Assembly (NCBI GenBank): GCA_010093705.1
Contig: MU006126.1
Span: 1 to 30,333 of the forward strand
Direction of reading: 5' to 3'
From: Patellaria atrata CBS 101060
Taxonomy: Eukaryota; Ascomycota; Dothideomycetes; Patellariales; Patellariaceae
DNA length: 30,333 bases
Shown here piece after piece: positions 1,558 to 30,008 of the stretch. Each line of letters starts with the position of its first letter. The first letter of the stretch is position 1. Under the pieces are notes generated by a model. It did not search any database and had not been told where the DNA came from. It saw only the letters and a list, made by a program, of their open reading frames with translations. The translations under genes and the position numbers were made by a program.

Positions 1558-2255
1558 ATGGGAACAGGTAGAATAAAGAAAGGAGGCAATAAAGCGTCGA
1601 GGTATAGACTAAGTAACCCTTTACGCATAAGCGGCTCTTTAAATATAAACGGACTGAGCTAGTTGTCCGTCGCTTCAGAGTTCTGGCTTCTTATCCGCGC
1701 GATATTGTACCATATTTGCTGTTTGAGGCGTTGATGCTGGCCAACATTAACACGCCTTCACACCACAACGTCGTCTCACGAGCCTTCCGCAGCATCCCTT
1801 CCGTATTTGCTGACGGAGGTCCAAGTCACTCTGGGTTTCAGCGATAGCCAGTGGTAAGAATCCCTGGTAATCAACTGTCATTGATAGTTTAATTCCCTAG
1901 AATAACTTGCTACAGCAAATCAGCTGGGAAAAGGTTGGCCACTCTGTTTTGACGCCACTGATATTTGGTGTAGTTTTTGCAATTAGCGCATACTTAGATT
2001 TATAGAGTGAGGAGATGCGCAATAGAATTGTTGTATTAGATCGAGATTTATCCCCTGTTCTACTCCTACCATGTAACTCCATCAAAGTAACGATTTAAGA
2101 TGATGAGTATAGTTCATCCATCAGCTCGGCAGTATTGATCGAACCAGCAAAAACAGAGCAGAAGGTTCTGCGGCCTATAGTATTAAGGATCTTGTGAAAT
2201 TGCACTTATTTTTGCTATCGCCAGGGAAATATGTGCGATTACCCATTAAATCGAT
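1558..2255. other. Spacer with possible unassigned minus-strand exon pieces
   Basis: Between the membrane protein and the C2H2 gene there are two minus-strand open stretches with a coding look but no resolved splice partners. One is at about 2097-2190 (ends with a Ser run before a stop). The other is at 1897-2079 (begins MELHGRSRTGD, basic). They may be 3' exons of the C2H2 gene upstream on the same strand, whose last modelled exon ends at 2256, or remains of a separate gene. I could not join them in phase with confidence. Confidence 0.3.
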
Positions 2256-4637: not shown

Positions 4638-5141
4638 ATGGATTACCTCCCAGCGGTCGGAGATGCTCTCTGCAATGCTACTGATCAAGATATCCAACGA
4701 TATGTCTGCACGATTGAACGATTTAAATTCGATCAAGCGATTCAAAAGCTCAGATGCCTTGCCAGAAAATTGGATAAGGCACCTCCAACTCCCAATCCTC
4801 CCCCAGAAACCAATGAGTTAGCTGAGGCATTAGTGAGAAGACTCCCAGAGCTTAAGAATTTCTTCTCCGAGAAGACTGAAATCGCGGTTGGACAGCCACC
4901 ATGGAAAGTGGACGACTACCGTCCAACTAATATTCGCCTTGTTGATGGTAGAGCTCGTAAGAAGACACTTCAAGCTGAGCTGCGGAGAGCGCTTGCGGAA
5001 CGGAGTCTTGCGGTCAATTTTGATGCATGGAATCCATATGGGCTTAAAGAGATTGTCAAAACCAAATCTTTTGAGGTTCGGAAAACCCGCCAAGGTTCCG
5101 TCCGTGACTTTGTTAGAAAATGGTATCGAGAGTGTATATAG
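4638..5141 (+). CDS. Hypothetical basic protein, single exon, 167 aa
   Basis: An intact ATG-to-stop frame of 167 codons with a CT-rich leader immediately upstream. The N-terminal third (to about residue 48) looks helical and ends in a KLDK motif. It is followed by a Pro-rich linker (APPTPNPPPETNE, about 48-60) and then a charged, basic C-terminal region with RKKTLQAELRRAL and VRDFVRKWYREC. No transmembrane segment, signal peptide or known catalytic motif is visible. The linker plus basic helices would suit a small nucleic-acid or protein-binding adaptor, but that is only inference. It faces the 58-aa gene on the other strand, with about 60 bp between their stops. I do not recognise the family. 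Confidence 0.6.
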   Translation: MDYLPAVGDALCNATDQDIQRYVCTIERFKFDQAIQKLRCLARKLDKAPPTPNPPPETNELAEALVRRLPELKNFFSEKTEIAVGQPPWKVDDYRPTNIRLVDGRARKKTLQAELRRALAERSLAVNFDAWNPYGLKEIVKTKSFEVRKTRQGSVRDFVRKWYRECI

Positions 5142-9071: not shown

Positions 9072-9456
9072 TTATGAATACTCGCCCGTTTGGAGGATTG
9101 CAACTCTAGTGGTTTGAAGCACTTTTGGCATGCGCCAACCCGCAATATCGGTATTCCAGGACGTTAGGCCATTACCGCTTAAGATTCCGTTTATTCGGTT
9201 GATAAAGTTTGTCTGGACCAGTAAGGGTATCTTACTCCACGACATTTGGTTTTCGAAAGAGACCCCTATATCCGCCCAATACTTATCACTTCCAAATGCG
9301 AGAGCGTCTCCCTCATCCCTAGTGATAGACTTATACTAAATATTTGGTTCATGGAGAGTGAGAGGTTATACTCACCAGAAATTGTTTCCACTGGTCATTG
9401 CTATACCCTAAAGCCACTTGGACCTCTTCCTTGGTAGACCCCAGTGTGATATGCAT
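9072..9456 (-). CDS. Small protein family member B, two exons, 112 aa
   Basis: Exon 1 (9456-9376, 27 codons) and exon 2 (9329-9072, 86 codons with TAA) join in phase 0 over a 46-nt intron (GTGAGT...TATAAG). The intron falls immediately after W-K-Q-F-L. The product has W..FL at about residues 23-27, ITRDEGDAL, KYW near 45, MSW-KIP near 57-61, NRIN near 71 and GWRMPKV near 91-97. The protein at 21241-21604 has the same motifs in the same order, with the same intron position, phase and length, which supports both models. The frame upstream of this ATG stays open for about 30 further codons (Thr/Ser/Pro-rich), so the N-terminus could be longer. Known function: none. The W/helix/W pattern hints at a compact helical domain of SANT-like size, but this is inference. 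A possible promoter is shared with the 7-TM gene. Confidence 0.66.
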
Positions 9457-12271: not shown

Positions 12272-13369
12272 GGCGAAGAAGGCAAGTCTCACGGGTAGTG
12301 AACTGCAGAAAGCGCGGAAATTTCATGCGCTTTATCCTCTGCATAGAAGAAGCTGGTAAACATCGACAGAGAGGCCAACAAGAAAGGTAATACTCCGCTC
12401 ACTTCAAGAGAAGGAAGCAGTTGAAGGCGATGACGTCTATAAAGGGGTCAAGATGTGTTGATTTGTTACTTGATCTGTGAGTGGAAGAGCGTAGCGAGCT
12501 TATCGTCCGTTTCATCTCTCTATAATCAAGTTCGGTTTCACGCGTTCAATACACTGTGCCGTACGATCCATGGCGGATGGAGAGAATGCGGTATCCTACA
12601 CCCACAGGCTCTTTGTGATCAAAAGTACTCTAAAATCCAGGAAATCGGTGGGTTCCATGTCGTCGAACTAAAAGTCGGGGAATCTGTGGATACCTTGTCG
12701 AGGTAATCGAACTAAAAGCCGGGAGATCAGCAACTAAGGGTCGGGAAATCTGCAGGTCCCTTGTCGAGCTAAAAGTTGAGAGATCGACAACTAAAAGTCG
12801 GGGAATCTGCACGTCCCTTGTCGAGATAAAAAGTTAAGAGATCGACAACAAATCTGTTATCAGGATAAGCGAACTACAAACCCAGAACTATTATGCCGCA
12901 GCTCCATCTAATTAATGTTAGACATTATTGAGTTTATCGCTTCCCAAATTCTCAAATGCTTTTACGATCACAACTGAAGGCCGACACCCTATCACTAATG
13001 CGATAAAGGTGAATCCATTCATCTGGACGGAGATCTAATATATCAGTGGGTTTCCTGTCCATCTCGTCGACATGCAGAAGCAGGTTTAATTCAGTCGTGG
13101 GAGGTTGGGTAGACTGGACGTCTTCATGGCTAGAAAGACGGCGCTGGAGCATCTTCCCTCACATCTTTGCAGTTGTTAACTCTAGCCGGCGTGGAATTCA
13201 GGAGAAAGCGGATGGAGCAAAGCATGTTCTAGAATTATCTATAGAAATTTTTATCATCATCTCAATATAGATTGGTGAAAATAATTGAAACACATCGATC
13301 CTCATTCGAATGCTTTCGAACTTCACATTCAGCTTTGATTGCGCTAAAGCACAGAGACGCAATATCATC
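12272..13369. other. Gene-poor stretch with minisatellite
   Basis: Besides the repeat at 12621-12846 I see only one frame with some coding look: minus strand 13152-12952, 66 codons from a true ATG (MLQRRLSSHEDVQ ... DLRPDEWIHLYR). It has no motif and no splice partner, so it may be a gene fragment. An ATTATC-rich tract near 13235-13265 is simple sequence. Confidence 0.35.
12621..12846. repeat. Degenerate minisatellite, about 57-66-bp unit, three to four copies
   Basis: Copies start at AACTAAAAG or AACTAAGGG near 12666, 12732 and 12789, each followed by TCGGGGAATCTG or similar, then CCTTGTCGAG, then AAAAGTTGAGAGATCGAC or a variant. A weaker fourth copy lies at 12621-12665. The last two full copies (57 and 58 bp) differ at few sites. 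Each unit also contains two half-units that begin CTAAAAG and continue into a GGGAATC or GAGATC core, so it probably grew from a unit of about 28 bp. Confidence 0.7.
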
Positions 13370-14306
13370 CTATGACTCGCCGTCGTAGTACTGGTCCTGT
13401 AGCTTTCTCAACTGCGATGACCCACTGCTTACCTCGCCCGCCTCGCCAGCGACGAGTTTCCCGCTCCAGACCCTATCCCGCTCTTGAAGGATCTCCTCTG
13501 CCCAAGCTTTGGTCTCCGGCAGAGACACTTTGGTTGCCACATAGGTAAACTCGCTGAGGTCGACCCTGCCCCCTCCACGCTTCTCATACTCCACCATCTG
13601 AAGAAGGAGTTCTACCTTATCGATATCTTGGACGAACCGGCTTTCTAGCGTCTCGGAGTCCTCGTGTTCCTGCCATAGAGCACGAATTTCTGTGCCCACA
13701 ATTGAGGCTCCAGCACCTTGAACGTTTCCTAATAGGTGTTGTGTAATATAGTCCATAGTCAATGTCTCTCGTCGAATCTTCTCCCTCTTCGGAACCCCGT
13801 CCGCAGGTGTAATATCACCCACCAGTAACTCGGCCATATCATGGATCAGGCACATCTTCATACACTTAAACAGGTCCAGGCGTGACGTAAGGGACGCGGG
13901 GCCGAGCATTGTCATCAGAGACATCCGGTACATGTGATCGGCAATTGATTCGCCTCTAAGGGGCCAACAGTTAGTATATGGTACTAGCAAATCCAGGTGA
14001 CAGTCTCACCCATTGATACCAAACCTTCGCCATCCCTCACGCTTCGTAGTCTTAAGTCGCTCCAATATGTGGAAGAATGGTACGGGAGAACTTGAATCTT
14101 CCATCGGCTTGTCGAAAGTAATAGCAGCCAGTGCTTTATCTACTGTCCATGGGTTGGATATCTTTGGAGTGATTACGATAGAAGGGTCTAAGGGTAGTTA
14201 GTAGGAGCACGAAGATAGATAGCATAACGCCGATGAGATATAAACCTAGGATCTCCTTGCTGACATTATTAGTACCGGTATCGTCGTTCATTGTGCTCAG
14301 CGACAT
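13370..14306 (-). CDS. HD-domain phosphohydrolase, HDDC2/YfbR-type 5'-deoxynucleotidase
   Basis: Exons 14306-14246, 14187-14010 and 13955-13370, with introns of 58 and 54 nt (branch ACTAAC in both), give 274 aa in phase. Residues about 55-80 read PFFHILERLKTTKREGWRR, the signature entry of fungal HDDC2-like proteins. The metal ligands of the HD fold are all visible: H87 (ADHMYRM), H118-D119 with E122 (IHDMAELLVGDITP) and D192 (QDIDKVELLLQ). Family knowledge: these enzymes remove the 5'-phosphate from deoxynucleoside monophosphates using a divalent metal, in the cytosol or nucleus. The roughly 50-residue N-terminal extension is common in fungi. The tail after residue 235 is low complexity. The gene is divergent from the HD-kinase fusion, 190 bp away, whose HD domain is a distant paralogue. 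Function is well supported; substrate preference is inferred. Confidence 0.9.
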
Positions 14307-14496: not shown

Positions 14497-15891
14497 ATGG
14501 AAGTTAATCTATCCCAGTTGGATATGTCACCGCTTCCATTCCTGCATTTAATGCAGGAACTCAAGCACATGGATAGGACTGGCTGGTTGAGAACGGTCCG
14601 GAAGCCTGAGAGCGTGGGAAGTCACAGCTTTCGATTAGCACTTCTGGGTGGTTTCGCGCCGGTTGGTTCTGCTTTTCATTTTCATTTTCTATTTGCTGAC
14701 CTAGTAGTGTATAGGATCCTTTGGATCGGAGGAAGTGTATGTTTATAGGACTGTGCCACGACTTAGCAGAATCAGTAGTGGGAGACATACCAACATATGC
14801 TGGTATGTCTAAAGGTAAGTAGGTAGATTTTTTCTTTAATCGCTACTAATTGAGTGATATGTGTTAGAGCGGAAGCATAAACTAGAATTCTTTGGCTTCC
14901 GGTATATTATATCGTTGGTAACGCCTTGCAATGCAAAATATGCGGACGAGATGATGACCGCCTGGTTAGAGTATGAAGAGGGCAAGACTGCAGAAGGTCG
15001 GTGGATGAAAGAGATGGATAAATTAGAATGCTTGATACAGGCACACGAATACGAACAGAAGACGTATGGGGAGAAGAACCTCGAAGAATTTCAGGGACTC
15101 TCATCAAAAATTAAATCTCCCGAGGGAATAGCGTGGTTAAACTTATTAGGACAAGAGAGAAGCGCTCATCTCTCAAAACGAAAACGGCGGCTCCCTGTCA
15201 TCTTCATCACTGGTATGTCCCGAAGGTCCTAACTGTCTTCGGTGCTAAGTAGTATAGGTGCCCTAAGTGTCGGCGAGACACAATGCGCTCTTTTGTCCCA
15301 GGAGTTTGGATTTCAGTACATATCCTTGCAGAGTGTCCTGCGTGAAATGTCTGAAGACCAGACATATCTTCACGCAGAGTTCGTGAGAGATTGCCTGAAG
15401 GAGGAAGTCGATGTTCCGGTGGGTTTGGTAGTTAGCTTGCTTGAAGGGAAGATTGAAGAAGGCATAAATGAAGGAACGCGGTGGAGCCTAGTCCATGGAT
15501 TTCCGAAGAGCATGGAACATGTTCTTGAGTTTGAAAGAAAGGTTAGTATCCCTACTCCCGATAGCATCTTACTAAAACTAGTAGGCCCAAAAACCTAACT
15601 ACACACTATTTCTGAACTGCTCCGCAGAAGAAAAGCGTGTTGGAAACCCGAAGCAATATTATGGGGCTGATGATGAACTAGACGGGTGGAAGACTGGGGG
15701 TTTAGATCTCAAGGATTACTTAAGATCAATGGAGGGATATTTCAAGGAGGTAAGTAGAGCGTAACAAAAAAAACGAGTCATGTACTGATTGCATGTCGCA
15801 GATAAATTGCGATGGATCTGTGGCAGAGGTCTTTAACTTAGTGAAGAATGCAGTCAACGATTTTATTGAATATGCAGAGAGGGAGAAATAG
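14497..15891 (+). CDS. HD phosphohydrolase fused to adenylate/UMP-kinase-like pseudokinase
   Basis: Six exons (14497-14661, 14715-14814, 14868-15212, 15258-15541, 15585-15749, 15802-15891), with introns of 43-53 nt all in phase, give 382 aa. Residues 10-185 form an HDDC2-like HD domain with ligands H43 (GSHSFR), H70-D71 with E74 (CHDLAESVVGD) and the Asp of KEMDKLE (139). After a basic linker (SKRKRR, 191-196), residues 197-382 follow the nucleoside-monophosphate kinase fold. VIFITG, TQC, a VLRE segment, HGFPKSMEHVLEFERK, PNYTLFLNC, ADDE and GSVAEVF are recognisable in order. The P-loop reads GALSVGETQC: the phosphate-binding lysine is absent and the loop is about one residue short. GFPR is GFPK, and LID arginines are missing. 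So the hydrolase half looks active and the kinase half probably only binds ligand or partner. It is convergent with the Zn2Cys6 gene. Confidence 0.85.
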
Positions 15892-16216: not shown

Positions 16217-17853
16217 TTACTCACTCAGCTTCGACACGTACGATTGAAGCGCTTTCATAGAGATCACAATCGTATCGTTATTATCTACCAAATCCATCGA
16301 TTTTTGGCTATCCCAATTTAGAGTGAGTGGCTGTTGTCCTACCGAACAGTGGTAATGCCACAACAAGGAATTACAAGAGGCGACCATTTCGTCAATAAGG
16401 GCTGTTGGCATAGATGGATGTATCCAAAATCCGCCCTTCGATAGTTAATGATTCTAGTTCCCTCAAATGCAGGAATGGCCTTACAGAGTCTCTGTAACGT
16501 CTCCAGTAGATGTTCCTCCCTGCATCCAGCTCACGAACATGCAGGAGGAGGAACACAGCCAAAGTCCCAACTACCCACATACGGCGGTCTCTCTTTTCTA
16601 ATATGACATGAAGAGCTTTTAAGATCTTCTCATCTAAATCAATTATATGTAACTCAAATAGGTGGCCTAGTTGGTTTTGGACCATACGTGGTACCGGGAT
16701 AGTGTCGTACCATGCGGACTGTTTATCTTTAATGGTGGCCATCCCCAGAGTTTCCTCACCAGAAAATCGCCATCCAATGCGAATAAGGCGAAGAGTCGTA
16801 TACATCTCTAGACAATCTCGTATGATTGAAACCTTGACAAATTAGCAACCGACTTATAAAGTTCGGGAAATGCTCACCTCGTTATGATAACGTGCAAGTT
16901 GGAAGAAGAAACTAACTGGATGTTGCGACTGACATACTTCATCCATTGCAAAGCTAACGCACGCCCTGATATATAACGAGATATCAATATTGTTGTTCGC
17001 TACGCAATACGCGGTAGTCTTTGTCCAGTGCCAGCCAGACGAATTCTTTCTGAGTGCGTGAATCTGGTAACTCTGGGTTGGGGTAAATTTACAGCAAGCG
17101 ACTTTCAGAGTAGGACCATCGACATAATGTTGTAACTGGGCTACCTTTTGGTCTTTCAACGAAGTCTGAATTACAGTTGTGAATAGAATTTGGTATGTTT
17201 CATCTTTCCCTGTAATATTATTAGCTCTATTATGGAAGTAACGTAAATTAGGTAGTAGAGGACATTTTTGGAACGGCTTATGCAATGTTACGCGCTCCGA
17301 GGTACAAATGTACGCCGGGATATCGAATTTAATGCATCGGAGGCAGCGAGAATCTCTTACGCTAGAGGGTTCTTTCTCGCACTATACTAACGTTAATCTG
17401 GTTCAAGTTGCGATTCACTTAAAGACATACTTTTTTCCTCGCTACCCAACACTTTATGCACAGTTTGGACTTTCTATCAACTCGTGCGAGACTTTGTGTA
17501 GAAGGCAATTGTTTGACTCCAGAAAGATACTCCGTATGATGGTCTTGAGGCTCCGGCGGTAAGACTACGCTAGCTAGGGGATTGGTGGCGGAGAAGGCTG
17601 CAGAGTTGTATGTGTTTAAGGAGAGAGCTGTGTTGGCGCTATGATGTTCAATCCTTAGATGTGTTGTAAGGTCTTGGCCATCAACTAAATATCCAGGACG
17701 AGTTGAATCTAAAGAAAGGTCGGAATCATTCTTTGGTCCCAAAATTGCGGTTGTAACTTGACCCTCCCCTACAACATCCCAATTGAAATCGCATAATCCC
17801 GTGACTAACGCACCCGCGTGCGTCCAAGTATTTTCATAATTTCCCTCATCCAT
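16217..17853 (-). CDS. Zn(II)2Cys6 transcription factor, four exons, 497 aa
   Basis: Exons 17853-17431, 17381-16878, 16832-16485 and 16435-16217, with introns of 49, 45 and 49 nt, are all phase 0 and give 498 codons. The binuclear zinc cluster is C132-X2-C135-X6-C142-X11-C154-X2-C157-X9-C167. The first two cysteines are in exon 1 and the other four in exon 2, so neither exon alone shows the motif. Unlike most family members the cluster is not N-terminal; about 130 residues precede it, including RPGYLVDGQDLTTHLR, rich in Asp/Asn/Ser. The C-terminal 300 residues are helical (IRACVSFAMDEVCQSQ, LARYHNE, LFELHIIDL, ALIDEMVASCNSLLWHYH), resembling the regulatory region of fungal Zn2Cys6 factors. 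Expected role: nuclear DNA-binding regulator; target unknown. It could act on the neighbouring HD pair, but nothing in the sequence proves it. Confidence 0.88.
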
Positions 17854-21240: not shown

Positions 21241-21604
21241 CTAACCCGTAGTTTTGAATTTAACTTTACTCATCCGCCAATGAATTACTCTATCGTTAAT
21301 TTGTGGCACACCTTCCTTGGTAAGACCTTCGTTGACTCGATCTAACAGAAGTTGTTGTTGGCGTCTTGGAACATCTTTCCATGACTTGATACCTGATAGT
21401 GCTTGTGCCCTATCAGAGTCCCAATACGGTTCCTCATTTAATACGAGTAAATCAGCTTCGGCTTTAGTGATAAACTATCGGTGATTAGAGCGATATTATA
21501 TAGGAACGGGAAGTAACTACCAGAAATTTTCTCCACGTAATCATATCAAAGCGTGTAGCAAGTCTAACATCAGAAGATGAGGACTTAGTTGTAATAAAGT
21601 CCAT
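21241..21604 (-). CDS. Small protein family member A, two exons, 105 aa
   Basis: Exon 1 (21604-21521, 28 codons from ATG GAC) and exon 2 (21474-21241, 78 codons with TAG) join in phase 0 over a 46-nt intron (GTAGTT...CGATAG). The intron follows directly after W-R-K-F-L. Neither exon shows up as a conventional start-to-stop frame, yet the spliced protein is complete. Motifs in order: W-RKFL (24-28), ITKAEADLL, EPYW (43-46), KSWKDVP (58-64), LLLDRVNEGL (69-78), HWRMSKVK (93-100). It aligns along its whole core with the 112-aa protein at 9072-9456, with one single-residue gap. It has Trp at conserved helix-like spacing, no membrane segment and no known catalytic residue. It may be a small helical nucleic-acid or protein-binding domain; that is inference. 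Confidence 0.7.
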
Positions 21605-22199
21605 GTTGCTGCTTTCCCTGTTTGCTATATGGTGTTAATGAGGTTGGTTAGGCGAAAATGGCGAAGATGGCGAAAATGGCGAAGATGGCGAAAAGTGCAA
21701 ACAGGACCACCTCCGCCTCCCGGACCTCAAAAAGAGGCTTAGGCGTGCGGCTAGTTCGAGCCGCTTCACAACGTATCCTACCGTGCAACCAACCGTAACT
21801 TATCTACCTTACTTTGTTATTGCCCAGAACAGCACCTCCTCTTAGTCTCGATATTCACGGAAGGAAGCATACTCCAACATTACATAAATAAACGCCCGTC
21901 GGAGCATTCGAGGTCAAAAGTCACGTCTTAAGCTGGGAAATCAGAACATCGTGTCAAGGTTCAGCGGGAACAACTGGAGTTATTATCTCGCTAGACTCGA
22001 CCATAGCTAAGTTGAACGGGAGTAGAGGCACTTGCAAAAAGAGCAACGTTGGCTAAAGATTTGGTAGGGAGACAATCCATTGCATTCAACTCTCTAAGTG
22101 TCTTACGTACGTACCCAAGTTTGAAGGTTGATTGTGGCATATTTGACTCCTTGGAAAAGCAACAACTTTCTAACGAGATACGTTAGCTTCGAATGTCCC
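21605..22199. other. Intergenic stretch with a 9-bp tandem repeat
   Basis: It lies upstream of the 105-aa gene and downstream of the DUF7924-like gene, both on the minus strand. Apart from the GCGAARATG repeat I found no exon, RNA gene or larger element. A GC-rich block (21705-21780) follows the repeat. Confidence 0.45.
21652..21697. repeat. 9-bp tandem repeat GCGAA(A/G)ATG, about five copies
   Basis: The copies alternate GCGAAAATG and GCGAAGATG, so the true period could be 18 bp. The last copy decays into GCGAAAAGTG. It starts about 50 bp upstream of the 105-aa gene's ATG and so lies in its likely promoter or leader. Confidence 0.8.
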
Positions 22200-23486
22200 T
22201 CATGTCTTCCGAGACTTTGCCCCACGCCTTCCTTTGCCGGTTCTGTTTGAATGGTTGCTAGACTGGCTTGGAGTGTGGTAAGCTGCATTATCTTCCACGA
22301 AGGCTTGCAGAAGCTCTTTGCGTTTCCTCGCTAAGCTCTCGCCAAACTCTTGCGCGTTACGTAGATGTTTGCACGCGTCTCGAAATGTATTATAGTCTTG
22401 AATTACATCATCGCGAATGACACGGTGTTGAGAGTACACTACATGTGGTTCAAAATTCCGGGAATCTACGATACATTAGCGATGTATGAAGAGGAATACT
22501 AAAAAGTCAACCTACCGCCGGAAGTTTCTATATCAGTACCATAGTTAGCGTATATATTTAGCTCGATTCCGTTGAAAGTCGCAGTGATAGCTTGAGTTTC
22601 CCCGTAAGGAGACGTCAAATTGGCTGGGTGTAAGTACGTTAAAGCGTATGCAGACTGAGCTACAGAACTGTGGGTCATCAGTGCGCCGTCATATCCAGCC
22701 TGGATCTCGGCTGTTTGAAGTCCTGCGCCCGTATTTTTGATCTCCACGGCGAAGGCAGGCATCATAAAATCGTAGTCTGAGGGTTGGACTTCACCCTCTA
22801 GCGTTTCTTTTGCTTCTTGAGGAAGATGTTCAGAAGTGTATGCCTCGAAAAAATCCGGCTTGGCATGAGGAAGCTCTCTTGTGAGTTCATTACACACATT
22901 GTTGAAGATGTGCTCCGAGTATTGGTTGTATCCGGGTGCCTTTGGTGTCTTAGCGAGCGTGGAGTAGAGCGTTGACTTGCAAGTTGCTTCGTTCTGTTTC
23001 TTGCTCGCAATCTCACGGTATCGCTCGAACTCCTCTTGGGTTGGTTGGGGAGATTCTCGCGACCGATCGAAATATTCTCGAACTTTTGCGATATCGCCGG
23101 GAGGTTTTGCGTAGGAGTAGCGATACTCCACATCATTTTTCAGTAGTTGTTGGCCAAATACGACACTGCTACTACTTGTAGTCCTGCTTCCGTTCGAGAT
23201 ACCAGTTGACGATCTCTTGCGGCTCCCCATGTCGATATCGTGAAGTTTAAGGTTATGCGCAGTCAGTCGAAATCGTTTTCGAAGGGGCGGAGTTGGATAC
23301 CGGTATTCGTCATTAATGCTTCCTGCATATATTAGAGACAGTACCTGGGAATCAGTGATACCGCAAACCTCTAGACCGAGTTGTTTCAGTATCCTCCTCA
23401 TCAGCTAGAACACGCTTTCGCTTGCGGTTTGAGGCAGGTTGAGCGAACCGCTTCGCCTTGCGGATAGTCTCTGAGCGCAACTGCAT
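22200..23486 (-). CDS. DUF7924-like fungal protein with PD-(D/E)XK-type core, 396 aa
   Basis: Exons 23486-23369, 23322-22516 and 22465-22200, with introns of 46 nt (branch CTAAT) and 50 nt (GTAGGT...ATCGTAG, branch CTAAT), give 397 codons in phase. The first ATG after an upstream in-frame stop opens MQLRSETIRKAKRF. A basic RKRKR lies at 22-26 (likely nuclear signal). A Ser-rich low-complexity stretch covers about 75-95. The core runs from about 190: KPDFFEAYT, then D224 of SDYDF, E233-x-K235 in AVEIKN, and Q247 in EIQAGYDGAL. This matches the order D...ExK...Q seen in PD-(D/E)XK nuclease-fold proteins. The C-terminus YNTFRDACKHLRNAQEFGESLARKRKELL resembles the closing helix of fungal DUF7924 proteins. 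Family placement is from memory of motif order; nuclease activity is inferred, and Pfam lists the family as function unknown. The gene looks intact. Confidence 0.82.
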
Positions 23487-25031
23487 CTTGATACCATCGA
23501 AGATGAAAGGGTGCGCTTTATAAATGAGGGGGACGGCTTAGATGAAAGATGAGGTGGACGTGGCGGGATGGCTCGGCGTTGTGCCAAGATAATAGAATCA
23601 ACGTACTGAGGTAAGGTATCCCTGTTCGCGCAGATATATCTGAAGAAGTTCACGGCAAGCGCTCACAATGTGCGTAACGCTTCGGAATCATTCTTGAGTT
23701 CATAATAAATCAACAGAAAAAAAGAAAAGACCGAAAATCCTCACCTCCTATGGGCCTAGTTCTAATAGGGAGTTCTGCAGCTAGAGGGTCGATACGGTTA
23801 ATTTTGTGTTAGCTATCATCTCCTCGTATGTAGCGATCCTCAGTATGAAAGTGAGTAATAATATCATGGAAGCCGCGAATATCGCTGACAATGCTAACAG
23901 AGACCTGCAAAAAGGACGCTATCATCGAATTGAGGGATACTTACCGATGGTGGGACCGCGAAAATGCTGCACATTATAGACGTATCGCTCTACGTAGGAA
24001 TACCACTCTATGCATGCACATGTGCGGCGGCACCCAAGAATGACTATATGTCCTCTATATCTGAGACGCAAGGGAGGATGCTCCTGGAAGAAGGCACGTT
24101 TCGACCCACGCTTGTGAGCAAACACGGGAGGAAGGGTCGATAATTGGATAGTTGGGGTGAAAGAGGGGAGGGTTCTATGGTCGGGATATGCAACGTCAAA
24201 AGCGGCAGCTGCTTAATCGGGCAGGTTTTAGATACATCCATCTAGGCCAGTAGCTTTATTGACGAAACGTTCGCGTCTTGCACTCCGTTATTGTGGCATT
24301 ATCACTGTTCCAGTAGGAGAAGAAAGCCACTCTCTCTGGATTAGGGCAAAAATCAAAGGATTGTTAGGCAATGACAAATAACTGTGACCTAGAGGCACTT
24401 CAAACGTACGGATTCAAGCTAAGTGAGTAGCTGAGAATGTCTTATCGTCCTCAAAACCTCGTCAATGAACGGAACACGCTGATTTAATCGGCCGGAAGGT
24501 GCTAGACTTTATTCGAGGACGGAAATACAGCAATCATGGAAGGTTGTAACGTAAGCGAGTCCTCCTTCGAGCCTACATAGCATATCTGCCGCCCAAATCG
24601 CAATAGTTTGGGCCTTTCGTTCCTTCCGCCCTCCGTGGAGCTTAGATGCTTGAATCAGAGTTTCGGACAGCCAGCAGCACTCCATTTGGATGACCACTAT
24701 GACCCTGAATGCTCTACTAGCCACAAGTCCAGCGGGTGACTTATCAAAGAGGTAGTCATGAAATACGACGAAGAGTAAAGGGGACACTCCAGGCTAGACT
24801 AACTCTATTACGCAGCAATGATCCTCCATGTCCTAACTCACACGCTGCCACAAAGGATCAAGGATTCCCAGAATTTCAGAATAAGCGGGTGCACTTTCCC
24901 GAGCCGTAGTAAGCAGGTCTGGGCAGAGGTTCTGTACGTGTATATAAGGCATAGAACCTGAAATCCGCGACGCAAACTTCCCTTCCACAAATTTTCGCCC
25001 CTTGCAATTCAGTCAAATCTCATACACCAGC
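23487..25031. other. Gene-poor stretch before the SANT gene
   Basis: The DUF7924-like gene's promoter probably lies at the left side. A minus-strand candidate (about 24125 to 23781) combines a basic frame, a GTAAGT donor near 23942 and a second piece with a clear membrane helix (SAIFAASMILLLTFIL), ending at 23781, but its first exon lacks an ATG and the acceptor is weak. A 92-codon minus frame (24787-24509) starts with GTG and shows no motif. The right end, from about 24820, belongs to the SANT duplication unit and contains its promoter, with TATATAA at 24941-24947. Confidence 0.4.
24941..24947 (+). promoter_or_regulatory. TATA box of the intact SANT gene
   Basis: TATATAA lies about 85 bp before the ATG at 25032. 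It is conserved at 28331-28340 in the second copy of the duplicated segment, in the same sequence context (TATATAAGGCA-AGAACCTG), supporting its use. Confidence 0.6.
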
Positions 25032-25706
25032 ATGGCCAAGCTCGCGAATCCCAGTCCAGCAAGTCTAATCCCATTCGTTTCTCCGTCTGGATATCCGAGT
25101 AGTCGACTTCAAGACAGGTCAATCAATTACTCGCTTTCTATTGCAAACTCCGACGGGGACACGAGTATGTGACAGCTTCTCACAAAAGATTTCTTTGCAG
25201 CTAACTAATAATCCATAGCATGTGCATCATATAATATCGCCAATCAACTCCACGCCCATACTCCTTCGGCGGTCTCTCCAAACGGACCCGGTAATGAAGT
25301 GATTCATTATTGCCGGTTCACGGTTCCAAAAGAGACGGAAGTCACTGTCACAATAGTTCGCTGTCCACACGGGTCTGCATTCTTGACCGAGGGGGTGACT
25401 GACGCTCAGCGTCACAACGTCACCAAAATCTCTCCAGACAGGTATCTGTGGATACAAGCGCGCGCTACGTGTGGAGAAAAGCCGCTCTCAAGGCGACGCG
25501 GAAGACCAAGGCGTCGTATTCGCGAACTGTGGACTGAACAGGAGATTGAATGCATGAAGAAAATAAAGAATAATGTAACTGAGGGCAATGGAATGGACTG
25601 GGATAGCATTTGCAAGAAGTTTCCAGGGCGAACTGGCCCTGCTGTGAAGACACGGTACTTACTCAACGCAATGCTCTTGAATCTGGCAAATGAGAAGGGC
25701 TCTTGA
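25032..25706 (+). CDS. Myb/SANT-like protein with AT-hook-like motif, 206 aa
   Basis: Exon 1 (25032-25164) and exon 2 (25219-25706), split by a 54-nt intron (GTATGT...CCATAG, branch CTAAC), give 207 codons in phase. The N-terminal 45 residues are Ser/Pro/Asn-rich (MAKLANPSPASL). The middle (about 75-125) has a beta-rich look with HYCRF, VTIVRCPHG and NVTKIS. A basic motif RRRGRPRRR (about 142-150) resembles an AT-hook. Residues about 150-200 form a SANT/Myb-like domain: LWTEQEIECMKKIK, MDWDSICKKFPGRT, AVKTRYLL. This has the WxxE...W..I...FPGRT..AV..RY spacing seen in many fungal regulators, so nuclear DNA binding is expected. The gene has a duplicate at 28.4 kb that carries an internal stop. 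No target is known. Confidence 0.85.
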
Positions 25707-26179
25707 TATGAACTCTTTGATATCGATTTTCTTTTGTCTGCGTTTATCAACTGCTTCCCTAGAGATTTTACTAGTACACTATCCCAATTTCTATCGTATT
25801 TCGAAGTATACTTTGCAATCCTACTTTACTCAACTCTGCCAACTCAGCAGATGGTTTCAACACCGCGATAATCGGAACGATAAGACCAAGAGCCATGCAA
25901 CCCTGCCTACTCGAAAGCGAGATATACAGGATTTACTGTGGGCCAGCTGAAGTACATAGTGTCATGAAAACACAATAATTTAGGCGTACTCATTGTGAAC
26001 AAGGGTTATGGTTAGAATTAGGAAGGCGCTTACGCGGGCGCTTGCGCAGATTTATCAGTTCTAGTTTCCAAGAACTTGAAACCGCAAAAACGTTTCGTGA
26101 AACAAGGTTCTTACCGTTCTCAGTAGAAACGCGCTTAACTGAACAATGTGTTCAACAGTTTAACCCAAAATCAAGAGCA
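25707..26179. other. Spacer between the SANT gene and the small C2H2 gene
   Basis: The left 110 bp are the 3' end of the duplicated segment. A frame open from 26042 runs in frame into the C2H2 gene at 26180 but lacks an ATG, so it may be a leader or the end of a spliced upstream exon. An 86-codon plus frame at 25690-25950 overlaps the SANT stop and has no motif. Confidence 0.4.
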
Positions 26180-26826: not shown

Positions 26827-28184
26827 ACCCTTGGAGAGAGCTACAAGCTGGCAAGATTTGCATAACATCTTGCGAACCATTTTGGGGACAGATCCAGGAG
26901 GACAGAACAAGGATAAGGAAAAAGCATCAAAGCAACATGATAAACTAATCAGAGACCTAGAATCAGGCATGAAGGATGGGCTGGTCAGTGCTTACTACAC
27001 TGATGGGTCAAAAGAAGGCAACAGAAATGCTGCAGGAGCATGCCAGATAGGAAACAATCAGCGCATTTTGTTTGCCAGCAACTGAAACTTAGGGGATAGC
27101 GTTGAGATTATGGATGCAGAGCTATTTGCCATCCTCAAAGCACTTGAAAGAGAAAAGACCCAACGTGAGAAGGGACAATCCATGCCAAAAACCTATGGGT
27201 TTTTGTGGACAGCCAGCAGCACTCAAGAGGCTACAAAAGAACAGCCTTGATGGAGGACAAGAATTAAGTGTGCTGATAACTGACCTATGCAATACTCTTA
27301 CCAATGAATGGGAAATGAAAATTACCTTCAGCTGGGTTCCTGGCCATAAGAACATCTTTGGGAATGACATAGCAGACAAGCTGGCTAAAAAGGGACTGGG
27401 CGGCAAGCCTATAGGCACTTCATTCACATCACTCAGTTATATTAAACGAAAATGCAAGGAAAAGATCTTATCTAATTGGAAACAAAGCTGGGAAGCTAAT
27501 AGCAAGAGACAAGGTAAACACTATACACGCATTTGCAGAGATCTTGTGCGTTTCTCACTCGGTATACCCAAATCCAATGTCCAGAAAAAGATTCAAGCAG
27601 CCTACTTTGAACTTAAGACTGGTATTGGATTCTTCAAGTCTTACTCTAAGGTGATTGGGAAAGATGAAGAAGGGAAGTGCTTCAGAGACTGTCAATCACT
27701 TCAAACACCAACACCCCTTATTTTACATTGTGCACACTACTCTAAAGAGAGTAAGGAAATCAGGAGGCAACTAAGATCAAAGCTAACAATACAAAGCTTT
27801 TTTGCACAAAGTTAGGCAAACAGGTGTTATTTAAGTATATAGCAAGAACTCCAATCTCTACTGCCAGATGGCTGATGCACGTAGGAGATGTAGACAGAGT
27901 CTACAGAAGATAACAAGATGTATGGCATATAACTGGAAATAGAAAAGAGATGGTAAAGAGGAAGAAAGATGGTTTCCAACAATTCCTTTATATGGAATTT
28001 AAACGTCCTAACTTTCCTTTGCATATAAAATATCAGTGGGTTAAGCCACTGAAGACTTCACTAAGCATATGAGGGCCCTGAAAAGGGATTTATGTATATA
28101 GGGAGTTGCGCCATAGCTTGAAGGCTGCATGCGCAGTATTGCAGATAATACAACACAAGGGAATAAAAAAAAAGAAAGAAAAAG
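26827..28184 (+). mobile_element. Tad1-like LINE, 5'-truncated copy A (RNase H and 3' end)
   Basis: A 3' fragment of a non-LTR retrotransposon. RNase H landmarks are visible: YTDGSK with its catalytic Asp near 26998, MDAELFAILKALE with the catalytic Glu near 27116, and the C-terminal PGHKNIFGNDIAD near 27335-27380. Downstream lies the zinc-knuckle-like region with LILHCAHYSKE (27715-27750), then a 3' untranslated part and an A-rich tail (28163-28184). Fungal LINEs with RNase H after the reverse transcriptase are typical of the Tad1 clade; the reverse transcriptase itself is missing here. The copy carries an in-frame stop near 27083 and at least two frame shifts (about 27200 and 27815), so it is dead. 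No target-site duplication was identified. Confidence 0.85.
28108..28134 (+). other. Conserved 3' stem-loop of LINE copy A
   Basis: GCGC ... GCGC forms the outer stem and AGCTT/AGGCT the inner stem, with one T-G pair. The same structure occurs in copy B at 29934-29961, with the T-G pair replaced by C-G. It sits just before the A-rich tail, where LINE reverse transcriptases often recognise their own RNA. Confidence 0.55.
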
Positions 28185-28220: not shown

Positions 28221-29300
28221 TTGATCCTCCATGCCCCTAATGGGATCGAGGATTCCTCAGCATTTCAAAAAAAAAGTGGCTGAACTTTGCCGCGCCGTAG
28301 GAAACAGGCGCTTGGCAGAAGTTTTGTGCGTATATATAAGGCACAGAACCTGCAAGCCGCGACACAAATTCCCCTTCCACAAATTTTCACCTCTTCTAAA
28401 TCAGTCAGGATTTCATATACCAGCATGGCCAATCTCGCGAACCCCAATCCAGCAAGCTGGATCCTACCTGTTTCTCAGTATGGAGATCAGAGCAGTGGTA
28501 GAATTCACGACAGACCAATCAATTGCTCGCCTTCTACTGCAAACTGCGACGGGAGCACGAGTACGTGTCAGCTTATCGCAACGATTTCTTTACAATTAAC
28601 CAATAGTCCATAGCTTGCGCATCACATAGTATCAATCAGTCCCCCGACCAGACCCCTTTGGTGGTCTCTCCAAGCGGACTGTGCAACGAAGTGATCTCTT
28701 ATAGCCGGGTCATGGTTCTAAAAGACACGGAAGTCATTACTACAGTAGTTCGCTGTCCAATCGGCCCTGTATCCTTGATGGAGACGGTGACTGACAGTCA
28801 AAGCCACATTGTTATCAAGGTCTCTTCAGACAAATGGCTGCTCATATAAGGGCGTAGGACGTGTCCAGAAAGGGGGGTAGATACGGCGCAAAGAGAAGAA
28901 AAAAGATTACCGAGGCGACGAGGCAGACCAAGGCGTCCTATCAACAAGCGATGGACTGAAGCCGAGCTTTTATGCATGAAGCATATGAAGATGGGAGTAC
29001 ATGAGGACCATGGAGTGGACTGGGAAAGCATTTACAAGGAGTTTCCTGAGCGATCTCCCGCTGCCGTGAAAGCACGGTACTACTTAACGCAATGCTCTTG
29101 ATTAAGGTAGCAGGGAAGGACTTTGGACCTTACCTCTTTGATATCTACGTTCCTTTGTCTTAGTACATCCAACTCTTCTCTGGTAGTGCAAAGGAAATCA
29201 GAGGTAGTGAGTAGTCGTTCGAGGCCACAGAAGCGGGTAGTGATTTTACTACTATAATACTCCAATCTTTATCGTAATTCCAATTTATCCTTTTATTGAG
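28221..29300 (+). repeat. Segmental duplication, copy 2 (interrupted SANT gene)
   Basis: Colinear with 24820-25815, including the TATA region (TATATATAAG at 28331-28340), leader, both exons, the intron and the 3' flank. It is bounded on the left by the A-rich tail of LINE copy A (ends 28184) and on the right by LINE copy B (starts about 29310), so both edges fall at LINE sequence. Confidence 0.75.
28425..29101 (+). pseudogene. Second SANT-like gene copy, stop before the DNA-binding domain
   Basis: Exon 1 (28425-28560) and exon 2, after a 53-nt intron (GTACGT...CCATAG) with the same position and phase as the intact copy, encode MANLANPNPASW... and continue colinear with the 206-aa protein. 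A TAA at 28847-28849 stands where the intact copy has CAA (ATA-CAA to ATA-TAA), giving a 123-aa product without the AT-hook-like and SANT parts. The frame beyond the stop stays open and conserved for over 80 codons (RRRGRPRR, RWTEAELLCMKHMK, FPERSPAAVKARYY). A one-base gap then shifts the last residues, ending at 29101. It is either a recent pseudogene or a gene for a truncated protein that keeps only the N-terminal region. The promoter and splice sites are intact. Confidence 0.8.
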
Positions 29301-29309
29301 AACAATCTG

Positions 29310-30008
29310 CAGCAAAGACAAGGAAAACATTACACCCAAGTGTGTAGAGCAGCAATCTCATTCTCAACCAATCATCGATCCCAAAATATCCAAAGAGGAC
29401 TCAAGCAGCATTCTTTCAGCTGAAGAGTGGAGCAGGCTTCTTCAAGTCATACTCCAAGAGAATTGGAAAGGATACCGAAGGGAAATGTTTTGGAGACTGT
29501 AGGTTTATCTAAAGCCCAAGACACCTAATTCTTCACTGCAAACATTACTCCAAGGAACGCAAAATCATGGAGAAGCAGCTAAAGTCAAGAATGACATTAA
29601 CAAAACTCTTTTATACAGAGAAGGGGAAAGTACTCTTCTAATACTTACACAAAACGCAATCTCAACAGCTAAATGGCTAAATGGCTGCTATATAAAAGAG
29701 AAATAAATGAAGAAGAACAAGAAACATACTAAAAATGATAGTATACAGGGGAAAAACTAGATTGATATATAATGCAGGGAATTGAAGAGCAAAGGACACA
29801 GTGGAGTTGGTTCAGTTTTTCTAATGCTTGGATTAGACTATAAAGTTTGGACAACTGGAGAGCTTCACTCCTCAGGCACTCTCACTAGACATATTATTGC
29901 CCTAGGATAGGGATTTATGTAGATAGAAGAGCAGCGCCATAGCCTAAGAGGCTACATGCGCAGTATTGTAGATAATGCAATACAATGGATAAAAAAAAAA
30001 AAAAAAAA
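29310..30008 (+). mobile_element. Tad1-like LINE, 5'-truncated copy B (3' end with poly-A)
   Basis: It starts near AGCAAAGACAAGG, which matches copy A at about 27505 (AGCAAGAGACAAGG), and runs to an 18-base A tail (29991-30008). Shared landmarks are CTTCTTCAAGTCATACTCCA, GGAAATG-TTT-GAGACTG, ATTCTTCACTGCAAACATTACTCCAA, GGGATTTATGTA-ATA, and the 3' stem-loop followed by CAGTATTG-AGATAAT. It is more deeply truncated than copy A (RNase H absent) and diverged from it with several gaps, so the two are separate insertions of related elements in the same orientation. The long pure A tail suggests copy B is the younger insertion. Confidence 0.82.
29934..29961 (+). other. Conserved 3' stem-loop of LINE copy B
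   Basis: Outer GCGC/GCGC stem and inner TAGCCT-AAG-AGGCTA stem, immediately upstream of CAGTATTG and the poly-A tail. It is the counterpart of the structure at 28108-28134, with a base-pair-preserving change. Confidence 0.6.

What the first reader, a model, noticed from the sequence alone, without database searches (positions are those of the whole stretch)
9072..9456. Hidden two-member small-protein family: member B (partner at 21241-21604)
Both copies are invisible as simple frames. When spliced they give proteins of 112 and 105 aa that align colinearly from W..FL through YW, W..(V/I)P, (D/N)R(V/I)N and WRM.KV, with one single-residue gap and about 30 percent identity by eye. Both have a phase-0 intron of exactly 46 nt at the same codon, right after W-x-x-F-L. 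Shared splice position, length and motif order at low identity is strong evidence for an old duplication of real genes. I recall no described domain with this pattern.
Basis: partly seen in the sequence, partly recalled or inferred. Interest (0 to 1): 0.78.

Follow-up and report, generated by a model that had tools for sequence, protein, structure and literature searches.

The report
Old duplicated small-protein gene pair
Two short, overlooked genes about 12,000 bases apart are distant copies of the same small protein of unknown function, with a broken third copy nearby; they look like ordinary members of an unnamed gene family, probably fungal, rather than something dramatic.

Summary
On the minus strand, 9072-9456 (B) and 21241-21604 (A) splice to proteins of 112 and 105 aa that align over 96 columns with 30 identities and one gap column (blastp E 7e-17; score 137, maximum 50 in 5000 shuffles). 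The unspliced exon-2 frames alone find each other among 779 frames (E 1.2e-9). Synonymous sites are near saturation while the protein is conserved (dN 0.77, dS 3.2); the introns are no more alike than shuffled sequence. This fits two old paralogues kept under selection.

Corrections: a broken third copy of exon 1 lies at 1816-1870 (+) (40/55 nt to B). 'Exactly 46 nt' depends on the model: B has an in-frame TAG acceptor giving 40 nt, A an in-frame donor giving 43 nt.

No significant relative was found in Pfam, NCBIfam, PHROGs, PADLOC, PDB, viral contigs, prokaryote genomes or (A only) plasmids. Fungal proteomes could not be searched, so 'new domain' is untested. Exon-2 models are helical but of low confidence. 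Best reading: an uncharacterised small soluble helical binding protein evolving by duplication and decay.

The parts
9376..9456 (-). B exon 1 (27 codons, starts ATG, ends W-x-x-F-L)
9330..9375 (-).
9072..9329 (-). B exon 2 (85 codons plus stop), holds YW, WSKIP, NRIN, WRMPKV
21521..21604 (-). A exon 1 (28 codons)
21475..21520 (-). A intron, 46 nt, donor GTAGTT, acceptor TAG; an alternative donor GTTACT gives 43 nt
21241..21474 (-). A exon 2 (77 codons plus stop), holds YW, WKDVP, DRVN, WRMSKV
1816..1870 (+). third copy: broken relic of exon 1, closest to B (40/55 nt), stop codon after the conserved W
1916..1963 (+). possible remnant of exon 2 of the relic (QISWEKV..., like B QMSWSKI); weak
   Evidence: 141 of 3000 shuffles as good

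Best explanation
A and B are two anciently diverged paralogues of a small, two-exon gene family, probably fungal. They are kept as coding genes under purifying selection, with at least one decayed copy nearby. Shown: homology, colinear motifs, shared exon 1 / GT junction, exon-limited conservation, the relic. Inferred: each makes a soluble intracellular all-alpha domain of about 70-100 residues, without recognised enzyme motifs, whose Trp/Tyr positions form the core. It would act as a binding module (protein-protein or nucleic acid) through the conserved C-terminal WRM.KV segment. Copies arise by dispersed duplication and are lost by decay. Confidence in the paralogue reading is about 0.9; in the binding-module function about 0.35.
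For: Alignment E 7e-17, 0 of 5000 shuffles as good. Unspliced exon-2 frames find each other at E 1.2e-9 among 779 frames. dN 0.77 against saturated dS 3.2. Introns not alike beyond chance. Codon-use score of the proposed frame is the best of six in both (0.094 and 0.083 per codon; 3000 random stretches: 95th percentile 0.017, 99th 0.119). Relic exon 1 scores 140 against a maximum of 110 in 300 shuffled windows. No cysteine in either protein; the highest 19-residue mean hydropathy is 0.84 (A) and 0.74 (B), so no membrane span or obvious signal peptide. Exon-2 models contain helices and no strands.
Against: No transcript. No homologue outside the window was found in the collections searched. A's donor GTAGTT looks weak, so A may be losing function. 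Codon-position enrichment alone is marginal (p 0.055). pI differs strongly (A 9.6, B 5.2), which speaks against one shared nucleic-acid-binding surface. The structure models are of low confidence (mean pLDDT 59.7 and 65.1) and lack exon 1, so the fold and the binding role are weakly founded. With lenient gapped scoring the relic did not exceed shuffles (165; 60 shuffles: mean 159, maximum 198).
Confidence: 0.6

Rival explanations
1. The copies are pieces of a mobile or repeated element (an accessory frame, or a domesticated capsid-like protein) scattered in a repeat-rich region.
For: Three copies within 20 kb on both strands, one of them broken. The window also holds an RNase H-bearing element with repeated stretches. 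A non-significant fold match to Ty1 Gag CA-CTD occurs in one list (rank 21 of 38, E 8.3).
Against: Similarity stops at the coding exons: 0 of 6 flank comparisons reached p<0.05. No inverted repeats of 12 nt or more within the stretches searched around B and the relic, and only one 13-nt, 85% pair around A. dN/dS of roughly 0.24 is not expected of dead element copies.
Confidence: 0.12
2. A is a decaying pseudogene and only B is functional, or both are relics, so 'gene family' describes past rather than present function.
For: A's weak-looking donor and B's AAG acceptor in the 46-nt model, pN 0.48, and the broken third copy.
Against: Both spliced frames are open over 105 and 112 codons although synonymous sites are near saturation.
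Confidence: 0.2
3. A known but undetected domain (for example a helix-turn-helix or Myb/SANT-like module) too diverged for profile search. This does not exclude the best explanation.
For: Helical models; Trp-rich pattern; a long helix then a shorter helix spanning DRVN...WRM.
Against: No Pfam family listed at E up to 10 for full or exon-2 proteins (HMMER's filters drop most matches above about 0.1). No Foldseek match at E<=0.001 in PDB (0 of 63 and 0 of 38 matches) or BFVD (0 of 45), with low-confidence models.
Confidence: 0.25
4. Chance resemblance of two non-coding stretches.
For: None beyond short length and low identity.
Against: 0 of 5000 shuffles as good; unbiased frame comparison E 1.2e-9.
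Confidence: 0.01

Closest known systems
Uncharacterised orphan or lineage-restricted small-protein families of fungi (a general kind, not a named family)
   Same: Short, intron-bearing, no Pfam domain, duplicated copies with a relic
   Different: Whether it is lineage-restricted could not be tested; a name in fungal databases may exist
LM1843 (PDB 9n2y_A), best PDB sequence hit of A and of the full two-sequence profile
   Same: Weak alignment of about 70 residues (A alone E 0.046; full profile E 0.2; exon-2 profile E 0.41)
   Different: Not significant; in the alignment only the last Trp is matched, not YW, SW or WRM.KV; B alone does not list it
Ty1 Gag CA-CTD (p22; PDB 7nli)
   Same: Appears in the Foldseek list of the B exon-2 model (E 8.3)
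   Different: Not significant; no sequence match listed in the PDB searches

Membership tests
Any Pfam-A family | Profile score at or above the curated cut-off | tested here: not met
   0 families at E<=10 for full A, full B and both exon-2 proteins
NCBIfam, PHROGs, PADLOC families | Significant profile match | tested here: not met
   0 families in NCBIfam and PADLOC (exon 2 only); PHROGs one 10-residue match to A at E 0.068
Mobile element component | Repeated ends or flanks shared between copies | tested here: not met
   0 of 6 flank comparisons p<0.05; one 13-nt inverted pair around A, none around B or the relic
Secreted cysteine-rich effector-like small protein | Signal peptide and several cysteines | tested here: not met
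   0 cysteines in A and B; maximum 19-residue hydropathy 0.84 and 0.74; no dedicated signal-peptide predictor was available
Fungal orphan or lineage-restricted family | Homologues confined to one lineage | not testable with these tools
   No fungal genome collection among the tools; no whole genome held for the window
   Viral and prokaryote collections gave no relative, which says little about fungi
Helix-turn-helix/Myb-like DNA-binding module | Three-helix fold matching known structures | tested here: inconclusive
   Models helical but mean pLDDT 59.7 and 65.1; no Foldseek match with E<=0.001

The most novel reading that the evidence does not exclude
A, B and the relic belong to an undescribed, widespread fungal domain family of about 95 residues with an ancient phase-0 intron after W..FL, repeatedly missed by gene prediction because each exon is short.
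Probability: 0.4. Interest if true: 0.45.

Novelty: new member of a known kind. Interest (0 to 1): 0.27.

Why it matters
If homologues are found, it would add a small protein family to genome annotation and show that short two-exon genes are missed by frame-based scanning. As it stands it is a modest gene-family finding: no function, phenotype or mechanism is tied to it.

Tried and rejected
A fourth copy near 1383-1408 (I4) was considered and rejected: A's best ungapped plus-strand match, at 1350-1400, scores 84, equal to the shuffle mean of 84.1. The possible exon-2 remnant of the relic is only suggestive (141 of 3000 shuffles as good). Lenient gapped DNA scoring was uninformative for the relic (165 against a mean of 159 and maximum of 198 in 60 shuffles), so a strict ungapped score was used afterwards. 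Other weak within-window matches (for example 14047-14133 -, E 0.042 with B) were not followed and are probably chance.

External searches that led nowhere: five scans of viral contigs. The 9 and 2 pattern matches became loci L001-L011; the profile of A and B found nothing better than E 1.8 in their frames of at least 15 aa. Two scans of genome contigs and one tblastn of plasmids with A only gave nothing. The phages and E. coli collections were not searched. Rfam at gathering threshold and tRNA search of the window gave none. PDB sequence hits are not credible; the lowest E values were 0.046 for A and 0.014 for B. Pfam on 27 other window frames (9, 10, 8) did not help to explain A or B. Literature: 'LM1843', '9N2Y' (from 2024) and 'WRM motif' gave 0 papers; a set of intron terms (5 of 6 required) gave 0; an orphan-gene set (3 of 5 required) listed 7, of which I saw the listing and, for PMC12684174, search passages only. 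The bacterial promoter and terminator scan is not informative for a eukaryote.

Full report
What was checked. The finding concerns two hidden small genes. I read both loci and translated their minus strand. Removing 46 nt after the 27th codon of B (9072-9456) and after the 28th codon of A (21241-21604) gives proteins of 112 and 105 aa. They align over 96 columns with 30 identities and a single gap column (blastp E 7e-17). The BLOSUM62 local score is 137, while 5000 shuffles of B gave mean 26.3, sd 4.7 and maximum 50.

Independence from splice choice. I compared all 779 stop-to-stop frames of at least 25 aa in the window with each other, with no splicing. The A and B exon-2 frames pair at E 1.2e-9. 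With tblastn against the window, A finds B's exon 2 at E 6.7e-9; its next match, at E 0.42, is unrelated (4866-4946), and B's exon 1 follows at E 0.47. B finds A's exon 2 at E 7.1e-9, then the relic described below at E 0.018, a match at 14047-14133 at E 0.042, and A's exon 1 at E 0.32. Exon 1 is thus weak alone and is carried by colinearity. The all-against-all list (best 30 rows seen; the A/B pair is row 14) shows other duplicated units: an HD-domain pair (13373-14005 and 14858-15229, E 5.9e-13), a pair at 16220-16444 and 24246-24341 (E 1.9e-9), and a repeated element at 24.8-29.6 kb. Old duplicates are therefore common in this window, and the A/B pair is one of several.

Coding constraint. 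By a Nei-Gojobori count on 97 aligned codons, pS is 0.74 and pN 0.48 (dS 3.2, saturated; dN 0.77). The two 46-nt introns match at 19 of 46 positions and their global score is no better than that of shuffled sequence (40% of 2000 as good). None of six comparisons of 200-300 nt flanks between A, B and the relic reached p<0.05. Codon-use scores, trained on 1558 codons from six long frames of the window, are highest in the proposed frame in both genes; stops in the other frames carried an arbitrary penalty. Against this, differences by codon position are 49, 45 and 62, a marginal third-position excess (p 0.055), as expected if synonymous sites are saturated but not strong alone.

Introns. All three copies share the exon 1 / GT junction (TTTCTG|GT in A and B, TCCCTG|GT in the relic). 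The equal length of 46 nt is less secure. A's donor is GTAGTT, and GTTACT 3 nt later is also in frame. In both genes the exon-2 frame opens directly after an in-frame TAG, which favours 40 nt in B. The preference for TAG over AAG acceptors and for GTRAGT-like donors, and so the word 'weak' for A's donor, is recalled general knowledge of fungal introns, not from a call.

A third copy. A repeat search matched B's exon 1 to 1816-1868 on the plus strand. The ungapped score over 1816-1870 is 140; 300 shuffled windows gave at most 110. Identity to B is 40 of 55, to A 26 of 55, and A to B 30 of 55, which suggests that the relic is a later copy of the B lineage. It has a stop codon after the conserved W. 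A possible exon-2 remnant at 1916-1963 is weak (141 of 3000 shuffles as good). Lenient gapped scoring did not separate the relic from chance.

What it is not. There is no Pfam or NCBIfam match, and none in PADLOC (exon 2 only); PHROGs gave one 10-residue match to A at E 0.068. PDB by sequence gave LM1843 (9n2y_A) at E 0.046 for A alone and 0.2 for the two-sequence profile, and for B a designed repeat protein at E 0.014 made of five low-scoring pieces; none is credible. Five viral-contig scans and two prokaryote-genome scans found no relative, nor did plasmids with A. These collections are not expected to hold fungal genes, so the absence says little.

Structure. I read the predictor's rule as not covering spliced proteins, so exon 2 was modelled from two sequences: A mean pLDDT 59.7, B 65.1 with block means of 61-78 over residues 1-70. 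Both models contain helices and no strands. Foldseek gave no match at E<=0.001: 0 of 63 (A) and 0 of 38 (B) in PDB, 0 of 45 (B) in BFVD.

Likely working. The proteins have no cysteine, no hydrophobic segment long or strong enough for a membrane span, 4 and 5 tryptophans, and pI 9.6 (A) and 5.2 (B). I infer a small soluble intracellular helical binding module. The opposite net charges argue against a shared nucleic-acid surface, so protein binding is somewhat favoured. This is inference, with confidence of about 0.35. The paralogue reading itself is about 0.9.

Origin of the window. No genome is held for it.

Verdict. It is an ordinary-looking uncharacterised gene family, interesting mainly if fungal homologues prove widespread.

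Noticed in passing
13370-14005 (-) and 14858-15232 (+): Two diverged HD_3-domain copies in opposite orientation, 37.5% identical over 72 aa (a further piece at 14715-14819 matches too); a frame with an adenylate-kinase-like domain follows at 15233-15598 after a stop codon.
   Followed up: partly
16344-16436 and 24219-24310: Inverted duplicate in two blocks (55 and 36 nt, 84% and 83%); the frames 16220-16444 (-) and 24246-24341 (+) match at E 1.9e-9, so the copy at 24.2 kb may be a gene fragment.
   Followed up: partly
24919-25760 and 28311-29181; 28122-28181 and 29949-30008: Repeated element: ungapped blocks 71-84% identical, plus a 60-nt pair (85%) ending in A-runs; an RNase H domain at 27093-27815 and a Myb-like match just under the Pfam cut-off at 25212-25706.
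   Followed up: partly
12628-12849: Tandem array of a 57-nt unit, 2.5 copies, with related 41-nt repeats.
   Followed up: no
21651-21694: GGCGAAAATGGCGAAGAT repeat (18-nt unit, 2.4 copies) about 50 nt upstream of gene A's start.
   Followed up: no
22499-23404 (-): 301-aa open frame with a sub-threshold match to DUF7924 (E 0.0016).
   Followed up: no
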